Shown: positions 2,675 to 9,306 of the stretch, piece by piece
How the letters are laid out: each line of letters opens with the position of its first letter
Numbering within the stretch: the stretch's first letter is position 1
DNA from: Ralstonia sp. SET104
GTDB lineage: Bacteria > Pseudomonadota > Gammaproteobacteria > Burkholderiales > Burkholderiaceae
DNA length: 64,000 bases
Direction of reading: 5' to 3'
Assembly (NCBI RefSeq): GCF_003851545.1
Contig: NZ_BHVX01000004.1
Coordinates: forward strand, 62,001-126,000
Notes under the pieces: model-generated
Databases searched by the model: none
The model's input: only the letters and a program-made list of their open reading frames with translations
Told to the model about the DNA's origin: nothing
Position numbers and translations under genes: made by a program

Positions 2675-2749
2675 CTCGCCGTAGCACAATGGATAGTGCA
2701 CGCGCCTCCTAAGCGTGAGATACAGGTTCGATTCCTGTCGGCGGGACCA
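2675..2749 (+). tRNA. tRNA-Arg (anticodon CCU)
   Basis: The cloverleaf folds by eye: acceptor CTCGCCG pairs with CGGCGGG (one G-U), D stem GCAC/GTGC, anticodon stem CGCGC/GCGTG with loop CTCCTAA (anticodon CCT), T arm ACAGG-TTCGATT-CCTGT, discriminator A and encoded CCA. It reads the AGG arginine codon, rare in such GC-rich genomes. An intrinsic terminator follows 12 bases later. Confidence 0.96.
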
Positions 2750-5641: not shown

Positions 5642-5668
5642 AAAAAAACCCTCGCCAAAGCGAGGGTT
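5642..5668 (-). terminator. terminator of the egtD-egtB-like unit
   Basis: Read on the minus strand, the 8-bp stem AACCCTCG/CGAGGGTT with a 6-base loop is followed by a run of T, 20 bases after the stop codon at 5688. Confidence 0.85.
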
Positions 5669-5687: not shown

Positions 5688-6986
5688 TCAAAGTGCGCAG
5701 GTTCGGAAGCCGATGAAGACATCGTCGCGCTCCGGCAGCACGAAACCCCGGAAACGCGGGTGACGCGCACGCAGCGGCGTATGCGCCGCTGCGCCGCGCA
5801 CGGCCTGCATCGTCATGAAATGCGTCGCAGACAGGCTCGCCACGCGACCTCGCGGCACGCCCGGCACGAAATCCGGATAGGGCTCGAATGGTGAGGAGGT
5901 CCACTCCCATACCTGCCCCCAATGAAAACCAGCGCGGCCCTGCACCGCAGCCATCTCCCATTCGTCTTCGGTCGGCAAGCGCCGGCCAGCCCAGCGGCAC
6001 CACGCCTGCGCTTCATACAGGCTCACGTGGCGCACAGGCTCATCGCGGTTGATCGTGCGTGCCTGGCCGTAGCGCAGCGCCTGCCAAGTCCGCGTAGCCG
6101 GATCACGCTGCCAACCCAACGGCGCGGAGCGCTCCTGCATCATCAGCCACTCCATGCCCGCCGGCGACCACCACTGCGGATGGTCATAGCCGCGATCTTC
6201 GATGAACTCCAGGTATTGGCCGTTGGTGACCGGCTGCGCGTCAATTTCATAGGCTGGCACATAGGTGCGATACGGCGGACATTCGTTGTCGAAGACAAAA
6301 CCATCGGCGTCGGGCCAGCCCATCTGGAAGCGACCGCCCGGCATCGACAGCGTCTGCGCAGCAGGCACAGCCACGGCGGCCAAGGGCGGTTGCCCAGCGG
6401 GTTGCAAGCCGAGCACCTGCAGCAAGCCATGCAGATGTTCGGCGCGCAGATCTTCATGGAAGACCGCCCAGCGGAATGGTTCGAGCGCCGCATCGTCATC
6501 GGTGCCGAGTGTGGCGAGCTTGCGCAGCACGCGGTCGAGCACGTCATGCGCATACTGCTTGATCGCCGCGATGCCGGGCAGCGTCAGTTCCCAGCACGCC
6601 TCGGGCGGCATGCGATCCATATCAAAGAAGCTGTCAGCGCCGTCGAGCGCGGCGGGCAGCGTGGCTTGCCAGAGCGCCAGGTCCCATTCCGTGCCGGCGC
6701 CGTCTTTAATGGTGTCGCTGCCATTGCGACGCGGCTCGCGCAGGCACCAGAATTCGGCAAACCAGGCAAGTTGGCCCAGCGTCCAGAGCGGCGGCGCGTG
6801 ATGCTCCACGCGTTCAATCTGCCAGCCACGCTGGGTATCGCCAAATGCAGACAGCAACGCAAGCGTGCGATTGCGCGCGTCGACAAGGCTGTGCGCCAGC
6901 CCCAGGCGCGGAAGACGGCGGCCGTCGGTCCAGTCGGGAAGCGATCCGATAAAGGTCGGATCGGGAAGCATGAAGAATTCAGCCAT
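5688..6986 (-). CDS. EgtB/SenA-family protein with altered iron site
   Basis: 432 residues with the family's two-part layout: an N-terminal DinB-like helical domain (about 30-190), then a formylglycine-generating-enzyme (FGE-sulfatase) fold (about 215-432) with RRLPTEDEWEMAA and VWEWTSSPF. Its end, FRGFVLPERDDVFIGFR, resembles the EgtB-related signature also found in selenoneine synthase SenA. Family members use non-haem iron to attach cysteine, thiosugar or selenosugar to hercynine. The iron ligands should be a His in a WELGHxAWF segment and both His of an HxxxHxE motif. Here these read WTLGQLAWF (Gln72) and HEDLRAE (His177, Arg181), so two of three ligands are missing. It lies 65 bases after egtD on the same strand. 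The ATG at 6986 has GAGG upstream; 6971 is an alternative start. Family is certain, activity doubtful. Confidence 0.85.
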   Translation of the reverse strand: MAEFFMLPDPTFIGSLPDWTDGRRLPRLGLAHSLVDARNRTLALLSAFGDTQRGWQIERVEHHAPPLWTLGQLAWFAEFWCLREPRRNGSDTIKDGAGTEWDLALWQATLPAALDGADSFFDMDRMPPEACWELTLPGIAAIKQYAHDVLDRVLRKLATLGTDDDAALEPFRWAVFHEDLRAEHLHGLLQVLGLQPAGQPPLAAVAVPAAQTLSMPGGRFQMGWPDADGFVFDNECPPYRTYVPAYEIDAQPVTNGQYLEFIEDRGYDHPQWWSPAGMEWLMMQERSAPLGWQRDPATRTWQALRYGQARTINRDEPVRHVSLYEAQAWCRWAGRRLPTEDEWEMAAVQGRAGFHWGQVWEWTSSPFEPYPDFVPGVPRGRVASLSATHFMTMQAVRGAAAHTPLRARHPRFRGFVLPERDDVFIGFRTCAL

Positions 6987-7051
6987 CGCGGCAAACCTCG
7001 GGCGGGAATCGGCCCATTATCGCACTGGCTCCCCAGCCCTTTGCGGCGCGA

Positions 7052-8098
7052 CTAGCGACCGACGCTGGCGTGGCAGACAGCAAAATTGCAGTCAACGTCT
7101 GTCCAGGCATGCAGGCCTTCAAAACCGGCGCCGGCAAACATCTCGTGCAGGCGCGGCAAGTCGTATTTGACGGAGTTTTCAGTATGCATGCGCTCGCCGG
7201 CGGCAAAGGCGCGCGCATGCTCGCCCCAACGCACCGTCACGTCGCGCCGGGCTTCCAGGTGCATCTCAATACGATGTGCCTGCTCGCGATACTGCGCGAC
7301 ATGGCGCCAATCGCGCACGTCGAAATCCGCCCCCAGGAGACGATTCAGGTTGCGCAGTACGTTCAGGTTGAACGCAGCCGTCACACCGAGCGGATCGTCA
7401 TAAGCAGCCTCGAGCCGATGCCGGTCTTTGATGAGATCGATGCCCATCAGCACGCTGTCGCCCGGCGCAGAAGCTTCATGCAGGCGCGAGAGGAATGCCC
7501 CCGCTTCTTCCGGCGTGAAGTTGCCCAGGCTCGAACCCGGGTAGAACCACACGCGGCGCCCATCGCCCACCACATCGGGCAACACCAGCGGCGCGCACAG
7601 ATCGGCGCCAATGCCGACCATCGGCAACCGCGGATGCTGGCGCGCAAGCCCCCGCAGCGTATCGCGCAGAAAATCCGCCGAGATATCGATCGCCACATAG
7701 CGCGACGGCGCGAGCGTACGGAACAGGCGCGCGGCCTTTTCACAGTTACCAGCACCGAGGTCAATCAGCGTCGCGCCGCGGCCAACCCGCAATGCGATCT
7801 CCGCTGCGTGCAGGTTGAAGATGGCAGCTTCGGTGCGCGTCGGGTAGTACTCGGGCAGATCGGTAATCGCTTCGAACAGGCGCGAACCCAGCGGGTCGTA
7901 AAAGAACTTCGGGCTGATGCTGGCCGCCTTGGCGAGCAAACCGGCTTCTGCCTCAGCACGCAGCGCAGCGTCGTCTTCCGTAAACAGTTGGTAGAAGGTC
8001 AGGCCAGCGCCCACGGCATCGACCGTGGGCTGGGGCTGGATCAGACGGGCCAGCGCGCGGTGGGCATAGGCATCGGCGGACGGCTTAGTGGCCTGCAT
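7052..8098 (-). CDS. egtD: L-histidine N-alpha-methyltransferase
   Basis: 348 residues, close to the usual 320-350. It converts histidine to hercynine (trimethylhistidine) with three S-adenosylmethionines, the first step to ergothioneine or selenoneine. Visible family features are SPKFFYDPLGSRLFEAIT (62-79), LPEYYPTRTE (81-90), a SAM-binding LIDLGAGNCEKA (111-122), FYPGSSLGNF, and TENSVKYD near residue 316, which keeps the Glu-x-Ser pair that contacts substrate in known EgtD structures. The ATG at 8098 has a GGGAGA ribosome-binding site; the open frame to 8338 adds unrelated residues. It is first in the two-gene unit with the EgtB-like gene. Confidence 0.93.
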   Translation of the reverse strand: MQATKPSADAYAHRALARLIQPQPTVDAVGAGLTFYQLFTEDDAALRAEAEAGLLAKAASISPKFFYDPLGSRLFEAITDLPEYYPTRTEAAIFNLHAAEIALRVGRGATLIDLGAGNCEKAARLFRTLAPSRYVAIDISADFLRDTLRGLARQHPRLPMVGIGADLCAPLVLPDVVGDGRRVWFYPGSSLGNFTPEEAGAFLSRLHEASAPGDSVLMGIDLIKDRHRLEAAYDDPLGVTAAFNLNVLRNLNRLLGADFDVRDWRHVAQYREQAHRIEMHLEARRDVTVRWGEHARAFAAGERMHTENSVKYDLPRLHEMFAGAGFEGLHAWTDVDCNFAVCHASVGR

Positions 8099-8391: not shown

Positions 8392-8399
8392 TCGCCCTT

Positions 8400-8525
8400 C
8401 CTCAAAGGGGAGTAGCTCGGGGGCTCTTCAGCCCCAGGCACGATCGTCATGACGAAGCTCACGCTTCCGGTCGTGCCGGCACCAGCAGGTTCCTAATCTG
8501 CTCGTGTCGAGCAAGACCTTTGCAA
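8400..8525 (+). ncRNA. yybP-ykoY (Mn2+-sensing) riboswitch
   Basis: The conserved 5' core AAAGGGGAGTAGCTC (8404-8418) is followed by a GGGGGCT..AGCCCC hairpin, further paired segments, and the conserved 3' part GCAAGACCTTTGC (8511-8523). CAAAGG (8403-8408) pairs with CCTTTG (8517-8522) to close the P1 stem. This motif binds Mn2+ and controls manganese-export and TerC-type genes, which fits the gene 89 bases downstream. The region after P1 presumably contains the expression platform; the mechanism was not resolved by eye. Confidence 0.88.
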
Positions 8526-8613: not shown

Positions 8614-9306
8614 ATGGAATGGTTGTCTGACATTTTCACCATGCAGTTTGCTGCCGCGCTGGCATCGATCATCGTGATCGACCTCGTGCTTGCGGGCGAT
8701 AACGCCATCCTCATCGCGCTGGCCGCGCGCAATCTGCCGCCCGAGCTGCAGAAGAAAGCCATCCTGTGGGGTGCGGCCGGCGCCATCGTCGTACGTGCGC
8801 TGATGACGCTGGCGGTTGTGTGGCTGCTGAAGATTCCGGGTCTGATGCTGGTGGGCGGTTTGGCGCTGGTGTGGATTGCGTGGAAGCTCCTGGCTGACGA
8901 CGGCCAGAACGGTGACGAACACGGCGCCAGCAGCACCACGCTGCTGGGCGCAATGAAGACCATCATCATCGCCGATGCGGTGATGGGCATCGACAACGTG
9001 CTCGCCATTGCCGGCGCTTCCCACGGCAGCTTCCTGCTGGTGGTGCTGGGCTTGCTGATCAGCGTGCCCGTGGTGGTGTGGGGCAGCGGCGTGGTGCTGC
9101 GCCTGATCGAACGTTTCCCGATCATCATCTACGGCGGTGCGGCGGTGCTGGCTTATACGGCAGCGCACATGATCGTGGCCGAACCCGTCCTCAAGCCGCT
9201 CTTTGCTGCGCAGCCGCCGCTTAAGTGGGCGGTGTATGGGGTGGTGTTCCTGATCGTGCTGGGCGGCGGTTGGCTGGTGCAACGTCGCCGCCAACAACCC
9301 GCTTAA
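8614..9306 (+). CDS. TerC-family integral membrane protein, probable Mn2+ exporter
   Basis: 230 residues, about seven hydrophobic helices. The paired family motifs are present: VIDLVLAGDNAILIALA near residues 21-37 and MGIDNVLAIAGASH near 124-137, whose acidic residues are thought to bind metal. TerC/Alx/YkoY proteins under yybP-ykoY control export manganese, possibly loading exoenzymes in some species. The riboswitch directly upstream supports the manganese role. Start ATG 8614 follows GGAG. Its stop overlaps the stop of the convergent threonine dehydratase gene by 4 bases. Confidence 0.9.
   Translation: MEWLSDIFTMQFAAALASIIVIDLVLAGDNAILIALAARNLPPELQKKAILWGAAGAIVVRALMTLAVVWLLKIPGLMLVGGLALVWIAWKLLADDGQNGDEHGASSTTLLGAMKTIIIADAVMGIDNVLAIAGASHGSFLLVVLGLLISVPVVVWGSGVVLRLIERFPIIIYGGAAVLAYTAAHMIVAEPVLKPLFAAQPPLKWAVYGVVFLIVLGGGWLVQRRRQQPA

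What the first reader, a model, noticed from the sequence alone, without database searches (positions are those of the whole stretch)
5688..6986. EgtB/SenA-type protein that has lost two of three iron-binding histidines
In EgtB-type sulfoxide synthases three histidines bind the catalytic iron: one in a conserved WELGHxAWF segment and two in HxxxHxE. Here the first is Gln72 (WTLGQLAWF) and the last Arg181 (HEDLRAE), both confirmed from the nucleotide sequence; only His177 remains. The rest of the fold, including the C-terminal FRGFVLPERDD signature, is kept and the frame is open. It may be a non-iron enzyme with a new reaction, a binding protein for hercynine made by the adjacent EgtD, or a decaying gene.
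Basis: partly seen in the sequence, partly recalled or inferred. Interest (0 to 1): 0.7.

Follow-up and report, generated by a model that had tools for sequence, protein, structure and literature searches.

The report
Conserved dead relative of selenoneine synthase
A soil bacterium carries a protein descended from the iron enzyme that makes the antioxidant selenoneine; its catalytic centre has been dismantled, yet the gene is strictly preserved next to the ergothioneine-pathway gene egtD, which suggests an old enzyme that found a new, probably non-catalytic job.

Summary
In detail: window 5688-6986 (-) encodes a 432-aa SenA/EgtB-type protein with Q72-H177-R181 where SenA and EgtB have three iron-binding His. 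The damage goes further: the equivalents of EgtB Tyr377, Tyr380 and Asn414 are lost too. It is not decay: 16 of 16 Ralstonia genomes keep it next to their only EgtD, and its dN/dS (0.038) is below that of EgtD (0.061) and the intact EgtB (0.070). Orthologues in 39 genomes of genus g3 (probably Cupriavidus) and one of g5 join it in one clade; in g3 the former active site varies more than background while scaffold residues stay fixed. A second set of dismantled SenA occurs in family f49. Rule found: SenB, which makes SenA's selenosugar, is in 50 of 51 genomes with an intact SenA and in 0 of 65 with dismantled copies only. Best reading: SenA turned pseudoenzyme after SenB loss, kept for a non-catalytic role, possibly as EgtD partner. 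No structure could be predicted; function is inferred.

The parts
5688..6986 (-). SenA-derived protein with dismantled active site (432 aa; DinB_2-like N-terminal domain, just under the Pfam cut-off, plus FGE-sulfatase-like domain)
   Evidence: (SenA NF041186 392 bits, cut-off 420)
6771..6773 (-). codon of Q72, first iron-His position (His in 37 of 37 intact rows)
6456..6458 (-). codon of H177, the one iron-His position kept in Ralstonia
6444..6446 (-). codon of R181, third iron-His position
5853..5855 (-). codon of P378, aligned with the catalytic Tyr377 of MthEgtB (Tyr in 37 of 37 intact rows)
   Evidence: role of Tyr377 from PMC10903977 passages
5745..5747 (-). codon of G414, aligned with Asn414 of MthEgtB (Asn in 37 of 37 intact rows)
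6897..6986 (-). N-terminal extension (residues 1-30), conserved within the clade; residues 1-24 not shared with the sister SenA proteins
   Evidence: (residues 1-24: 50% identity to g3, 4% to four sister SenA)
7052..8098 (-). egtD, histidine N-alpha-methyltransferase (348 aa from the ATG before MQATKPS, my choice of start; the listed ORF runs to 8338)
   Evidence: (TIGR03438 374.5 bits, cut-off 290.9)
6987..7051 (-). 65-base gap between egtD and the pseudo-SenA gene, with GAGG nine bases before the ATG (my reading); no terminator-like site called in it
5647..5668 (-). terminator-like hairpin plus T run just after the pseudo-SenA stop codon (end of a putative egtD operon)
   Evidence: 6 such sites in the region, 2.5 expected in shuffles; no promoter-like site called

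Best explanation
It is a pseudoenzyme descended from selenoneine synthase SenA. Shown: the ancestor belonged to the SenA family; two iron ligands and the position of the catalytic tyrosine are lost; the gene is kept by purifying selection beside the genome's only egtD; and no SenB, which makes SenA's selenosugar substrate, is found. Inferred: once SenB was lost SenA had no substrate, its active site was freed from constraint, and the folded protein was retained for a non-catalytic job (binding a protein or a small molecule). In Ralstonia and its sister genera the most likely partner is the co-encoded EgtD or the hercynine branch it starts, perhaps through the clade-specific N-terminal extension. 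My split: catalytically dead as SenA/EgtB 0.9; retained for a non-catalytic function 0.65; that function acts on EgtD or hercynine 0.35.
For: Descent: nearest solved relatives by sequence are SenA 8ryz/8k5i; SenA is the best NCBIfam model though below its cut-off; clade support 100 with intact SenA as sister; the sister locus L109 has senA, senB, a SelD-like gene and egtD together. Dismantling: 32 of 62 positions invariant (95%) in 37 intact SenA are kept (at 90%) in 53 clade rows, against 56 of 60 for the neighbouring EgtD; clade rows keep 0-4 of 15 site residues, intact rows 14-15 (one cut-off row 12); the position of Tyr377 is lost in 33 of 33 sampled dismantled rows of both lineages. Selection: dN/dS 0.038 (13 sequences, 78 pairs) against EgtD 0.061 and EgtB 0.070; g3 0.205 (39 sequences), equal to EgtD 0.202. 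Reversal of constraint in g3: 15 former site positions 1.03 bits, background 0.57, 34 scaffold positions 0.02; in intact SenA 0.036 for the site against 1.94 background. Substrate loss: SenB over cut-off in 0 of 16 Ralstonia; of 74 genomes 25 have SenB and these are the 25 with an intact SenA; a later test on the 26 remaining genomes with an intact copy found SenB in 25. EgtD link: adjacent, same strand, in 16 of 16, 39 of 39 and 1 of 1 loci; EgtD is single-copy in 16 of 16.
Against: No experiment and no structure model (12 attempts, machine busy). egtD adjacency is partly inherited: egtD also sits near intact senA elsewhere, so it is weak proof of a shared function. In family f49 none of 30 loci shows egtD in its flanks of about 1.5 kb, and 3 of 14 genomes with only a dismantled copy have neither EgtD nor EgtB, so there the function cannot need hercynine. 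The iron triad itself is not always lost: 7 of 22 f49 copies that I call dismantled keep all three His and lose other site residues, and 2 of 39 g3 copies (L150, L155) have His at position 181 with H72 and H177. One genome with an intact SenA (G356, 96% complete, 130 contigs) shows no SenB; its senA starts 259 bases from a contig end, so SenB may be missing from the assembly. In Ralstonia alone the changed site positions are themselves fixed (14 of 15 invariant; 301 of 365 in the background), which would also fit a new conserved site. A Tyr377 call depends on the alignment around a four-residue insert of this clade.
Confidence: 0.6

Rival explanations
1. A working enzyme with new chemistry, without iron or with another metal, using the remodelled SenA pocket.
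For: In Ralstonia the new residues (A64, T69, Q72, L180, R181, H389, G414) are the same in 13 of 13 rows and dN/dS is very low; H62/H63, H184, H186 and H389 add histidines near the old site in sequence.
Against: The orthologous positions vary in g3 (1.03 bits against 0.57 background); no His is conserved through the clade except H320, which most intact SenA also have; H62 is Tyr in one Ralstonia.
Confidence: 0.15
2. A ligand sensor or carrier for hercynine or ergothioneine that binds them in the old pocket and reports to EgtD or buffers the product.
For: Pairing with the only EgtD; an intact EgtB elsewhere in the genome (TIGR03440 589.5 bits) would use the same hercynine.
Against: The Asn414 and Tyr380 positions are lost and differ between genera; in f49 3 of 14 genomes with only a dismantled copy have no EgtD or EgtB.
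Confidence: 0.13
3. A decaying gene on its way to loss.
For: Loss of catalytic residues; relaxed site positions in g3; dN/dS of dismantled f49 pairs is 0.23-0.29 in 3 pairs, against 0.15 and 0.22 for 2 intact pairs.
Against: No internal stop in the 16 Ralstonia rows (two cut by contig ends) or the 39 g3 rows; dN/dS 0.038 in Ralstonia, lower than for intact neighbours; the 34 scaffold positions are near-invariant in g3 (the 34 were chosen with some of these rows in view).
Confidence: 0.04
4. Still an iron enzyme: other residues complete the site, or one or two His are enough.
For: H177 is kept in Ralstonia; 31 of 39 g3 copies keep both H72 and H177, two of them (L150, L155) all three; 7 of 22 dismantled f49 copies keep all three.
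Against: 7 of 39 g3 sequences (A-Y-Q, three N-Y-Q, Y-L-Q, N-F-Q, S-Y-Q) and the g5 one (N-R-E) have lost all three; the Tyr377 and Asn414 positions are lost in all 11 sampled clade rows.
Confidence: 0.05

Closest known systems
Selenoneine synthase SenA (NF041186; PDB 8k5i, 8ryz)
   Same: Full-length similarity, best model and best solved relative, common ancestry, old gene neighbour egtD
   Different: Below the family cut-off; two iron His and the Tyr and Asn positions lost; no SenB found in the genome; an added conserved N-terminal extension
Sulfoxide synthase EgtB (TIGR03440; PDB 4x8b)
   Same: Same superfamily and pathway neighbourhood (hercynine)
   Different: 234.6 bits against a cut-off of 360; the genome has a separate intact EgtB with three His (589.5 bits)
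SUMF2/pFGE, paralogue of formylglycine-generating enzyme; the abstract of a zebrafish paper calls sumf2 and sumf1 negative and positive factors (PMC13199485, search listing only; PDB 1y4j)
   Same: Precedent in the FGE-like fold for a paralogue that regulates instead of the active enzyme's reaction
   Different: No DinB domain (recalled), animal protein; it acts beside its own active paralogue, whereas here the suspected partner is an unrelated methyltransferase

Membership tests
SenA (selenoneine synthase) | score over the curated NCBIfam cut-off (420 bits) | tested here: not met
   392 bits; orthologues L014 364.4, L050 361, L150 370.6
SenA (selenoneine synthase) | three iron-binding His | tested here: not met
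   Q72/H177/R181
SenA (selenoneine synthase) | Tyr and Asn at the positions of EgtB Tyr377/Tyr380/Asn414 (37 of 37 intact rows) | tested here: not met
   P378, L385, G414
SenA (selenoneine synthase) | SenB selenosugar synthase in the same genome | tested here: not met
   0 of 16 Ralstonia over the TIGR04348 cut-off, this genome included
SenA (selenoneine synthase) | full-length sequence similarity and common descent | tested here: met
SenA (selenoneine synthase) | C-Se bond formation with hercynine | not testable with these tools
   needs assay
EgtB (ergothioneine sulfoxide synthase) | score over the TIGR03440 cut-off (360) and three His | tested here: not met
   234.6 bits; two His absent
Pseudoenzyme of the FGE/EgtB fold | catalytic residues lost while the gene is under purifying selection | tested here: met
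Pseudoenzyme of the FGE/EgtB fold | no catalytic activity, and a bound or regulated partner | not testable with these tools
   needs biochemistry
Pseudoenzyme of the FGE/EgtB fold | retained three-dimensional fold | not tested
   structure prediction did not run; only sequence models support the fold

The most novel reading that the evidence does not exclude
Loss of SenB repeatedly turns selenoneine synthase into a selected pseudoenzyme: in Burkholderiales a whole class of SenA-derived, non-catalytic proteins exists (one clade beside egtD in Ralstonia and its sisters, and several separate events in family f49), kept for a function that SenA already had beside catalysis or gained afterwards. 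Some of them score as 'selenoneine synthase' in current annotation models.
Probability: 0.5. Interest if true: 0.75.

Novelty: new variant of a known kind. Interest (0 to 1): 0.6.

Why it matters
If true, it corrects annotation: two dismantled copies that I scored pass NCBI's SenA cut-off (L084 478 and L115 424.7 bits, cut-off 420), so selenoneine production may be over-predicted. It gives a simple genomic test, SenB presence, for real selenoneine makers. It also offers a natural series of repeated enzyme-to-pseudoenzyme conversions in one family, with living intact sisters, and points to an unknown accessory factor beside the first enzyme of ergothioneine synthesis in Ralstonia and its sister genera.

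Tried and rejected
Alternative histidines completing the iron site: not supported by the His census over 12 Ralstonia, 39 g3, one g5 and 37 intact rows. Decay: rejected by dN/dS. Two sulfoxide synthase genes confused: rejected, the second copy (G000:C7) is an intact EgtB over its cut-off. One EgtD-bound function for all dismantled copies: weakened, because 3 of 14 f49 genomes lack EgtD and EgtB (G636 is 86% complete, G669 99%, G627 100%). Gene neighbours in f49: no constant partner seen by eye in 10 f49 loci (one search listed 12, two of them from another family; no family scan was run on them); within about 1.5 kb a SelD-like gene without SenB stands beside 4 of 30, and 3 more have both. EgtD residues peculiar to the clade (15 positions) were seen but not tied to an interface; that call's outgroup wrongly held L015, a clade member, put right. 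Naming g3 through plasmid records failed, so 'Cupriavidus' is my guess. Names SenB and SelD rest on one g3 locus: SenB is borne out by TIGR04348 at the same place, SelD is by eye. Literature: eight searches, some with capped listings (20 of 2,602; 30 of 36; 20 of 24; 20 of 1,002), and passages of two papers showed nothing on a dismantled SenA or EgtB; the library is open access only and the SenA structure paper was not found.

Caveats on counts: the 15 signature positions were chosen from this clade against intact SenA before the f49 copies were read, so they are an independent test for f49 but not for this clade. The 34 'retained' positions were chosen with sampled g3 and f49 rows in view. 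The g3 genomes are those listed with a match; 107 unmatched genomes of that call were not listed, and only the five best candidates per genome were scored there. In f49, 30 loci of the 58 matching genomes (120 searched) were examined, the best matches to a dismantled copy. The 74 genomes were chosen by me for holding a copy whose site I had read; one search then took the 26 other genomes with an intact copy. Totals: SenB in 25 of 25 plus 25 of 26 genomes with an intact copy; in 0 of 49 plus 0 of 16 with dismantled copies only. Fisher p (2.9e-20, for the 74) ignores relatedness; within f49 it is 16 to 14 without exception. dN/dS is Nei-Gojobori without correction for G+C bias.

Full report
What is in the sequence. 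Window 5688-6986 (minus strand) holds one open frame of 432 residues. NCBIfam gives SenA (NF041186, 392 bits, cut-off 420) well ahead of EgtB (234.6, cut-off 360); Pfam finds the FGE-sulfatase domain and a DinB_2 domain just under its cut-off. The closest solved structures by sequence are selenoneine synthase SenA, 8ryz and 8k5i. The alignment puts Q72 and R181 on two of the three iron-binding His; H177 is the third.

The loss is wider than stated. I compared 53 rows of this clade with 37 intact SenA homologues. In the window protein N64, E69, S123, H128, M180, Y378, Y385 and N414, besides the two His, stand changed where the intact set is invariant. In the alignment P378 stands on MthEgtB Tyr377, whose mutation to Phe strongly cuts sulfoxide synthase activity (PMC10903977, passages), and G414 on Asn414 (numbering fixed by His51 and Tyr377 of PMC4768315, passages; that Asn414 touches the substrate is my recollection). 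The 'FRGFVLPERDD signature' has therefore lost an invariant Asn. Of 62 positions invariant at 95% in intact SenA the clade keeps 32, whereas the EgtD next door keeps 56 of 60. Over 15 site positions clade rows keep 0-4 canonical residues and intact rows 14-15, one truncated row 12.

It is an old, conserved state. All 16 Ralstonia genomes held have the orthologue; in the 15 that could be read the site is Q-H-R. These form one clade with support 100, whose sister is intact SenA. In the 39 g3 rows the triad reads H-H-Q (27), H-H-Y (2), H-H-H (2, close relatives L150 and L155), H-L-Q (1), and in 7 rows no His is left. The same neighbours (DEAD-box helicase, egtD, TerC, thymidylate synthase) flank the gene in the window and in a g3 locus (helicase and thymidylate synthase also named by matches, TerC by my reading).

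It is not decaying. Pairwise dN/dS has a median of 0.038 in Ralstonia (13 sequences, 78 pairs, median dS 0.66), below EgtD (0.061) and the intact EgtB of the genus (0.070, 14 sequences). In g3 it is 0.205, like EgtD there (0.202) and true SenA (0.170, 6 sequences). In g3 the 15 former site positions are more variable (1.03 bits) than the background (0.57), while 34 scaffold positions are almost frozen (0.02); in intact SenA the order is reversed, 0.036 for the site and 1.94 for background. A protein whose scaffold is guarded and whose catalytic centre drifts is what a pseudoenzyme should look like. In Ralstonia the site residues are fixed in their new state, which the small divergence there cannot tell apart from general conservation.

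Surroundings. egtD (7052-8098) ends 65 bases before the gene on the same strand, and a terminator-like hairpin follows the gene's stop. The pairing holds in 16 of 16 Ralstonia, 39 of 39 g3 and 1 of 1 g5 loci. EgtD is the only one in each of the 16 Ralstonia genomes, scores above cut-off and keeps the TExS and YDD stretches of 4pim. An intact three-His EgtB lies elsewhere, so ergothioneine synthesis can run without the window protein's chemistry (inference). Residues 1-24 are conserved within the clade (50% between Ralstonia and g3) but not in four sister SenA (4%): a gained element, possibly an interface (inference).

Why the site was lost. SenA uses a selenosugar made by SenB (PMC10903977 passage). 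The sister locus L109 has senA, senB, a SelD-like gene and egtD within 4.3 kb. No Ralstonia has a SenB over the family cut-off, 0 of 16. Of 74 further genomes 25 have SenB; these are the 25 with an intact SenA, and the 49 without SenB have only dismantled copies. As a check I then searched the 26 other genomes in which I had read an intact copy: 25 have SenB. The exception, G356, is a draft of 130 contigs whose senA begins 259 bases from a contig end, on the side where SenB lies in loci such as L060 and L109. In all, SenB is in 50 of 51 genomes with an intact copy and 0 of 65 with dismantled copies only. The five g3 genomes with SenB carry a separate, intact SenA beside it as well as the dismantled one.

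The same has happened elsewhere. A search of 120 genomes of family f49 found 58 with a relative. Of the 30 best loci, 22 have dismantled and 8 intact sites; over 70 rows the state is two-peaked, 14-15 of 15 signature residues or at most 11. 'Dismantled' here means the 15-residue site: 7 of the 22 still have the three His. On a tree built without those columns the label needs 8 changes (shuffled mean about 23; well-supported branches force at least 3). In these 30 genomes the SenB rule holds 16 to 14 without exception. The position of Tyr377 is lost in all 33 dismantled rows sampled. Against a common EgtD-bound function: 3 of the 14 SenB-less f49 genomes have neither EgtD nor EgtB, and none of the 30 f49 loci shows egtD within its flanks.

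How it most likely works. Shown: descent from SenA, dismantled site, selection, absence of SenB, egtD pairing. Inferred: without the selenosugar the catalytic centre became free to change, and the folded protein was kept for a binding role. In Ralstonia the nearest candidate is EgtD or its product; I give that step 0.35. The FGE-like fold has a precedent in SUMF2, named with its paralogue SUMF1 as negative and positive factors (PMC13199485, search listing).

Novelty. Eight literature searches, with capped listings, showed no description of a dismantled SenA or EgtB; the library holds open-access papers only. I rate it a new variant of a known kind: a pseudoenzyme branch of the SenA family, unusual for its recurrence and its close tie to SenB.

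Noticed in passing
8395-8508 (+): A match below threshold to the manganese (yybP-ykoY) riboswitch RF00080, 35.9 bits against a gathering score of 45 (E 2.5e-8 in a 401-base search), lies upstream of a TerC-like gene at 8614 (name by eye); probably a real Mn riboswitch.
   Followed up: partly
L160-L189, L112, L115 (family f49 genomes): 22 of 30 SenA homologues have dismantled sites; two that were scored pass the NCBIfam SenA cut-off (478 and 424.7 bits), so they would be annotated as selenoneine synthase.
   Followed up: yes
L150 and L155 (g3): Two closely related sequences have His at the third iron position inside a clade of Gln; with H72 and H177 the triad is there while the other site residues stay lost.
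   Followed up: partly
L171, L177, L185, L186 (family f49): A SelD-like gene right beside a dismantled SenA, with no SenB over cut-off in the genome: perhaps remnants of a sen cluster.
   Followed up: no
L112, L115, L190, L204 (family f49): The f49 SenA-type gene, intact or dismantled, has nearby a gene that I took by eye for a molybdate-type regulator; not scanned against families.
   Followed up: no
2675-2746 (+): A tRNA gene (Rfam 64.1 bits).
   Followed up: no
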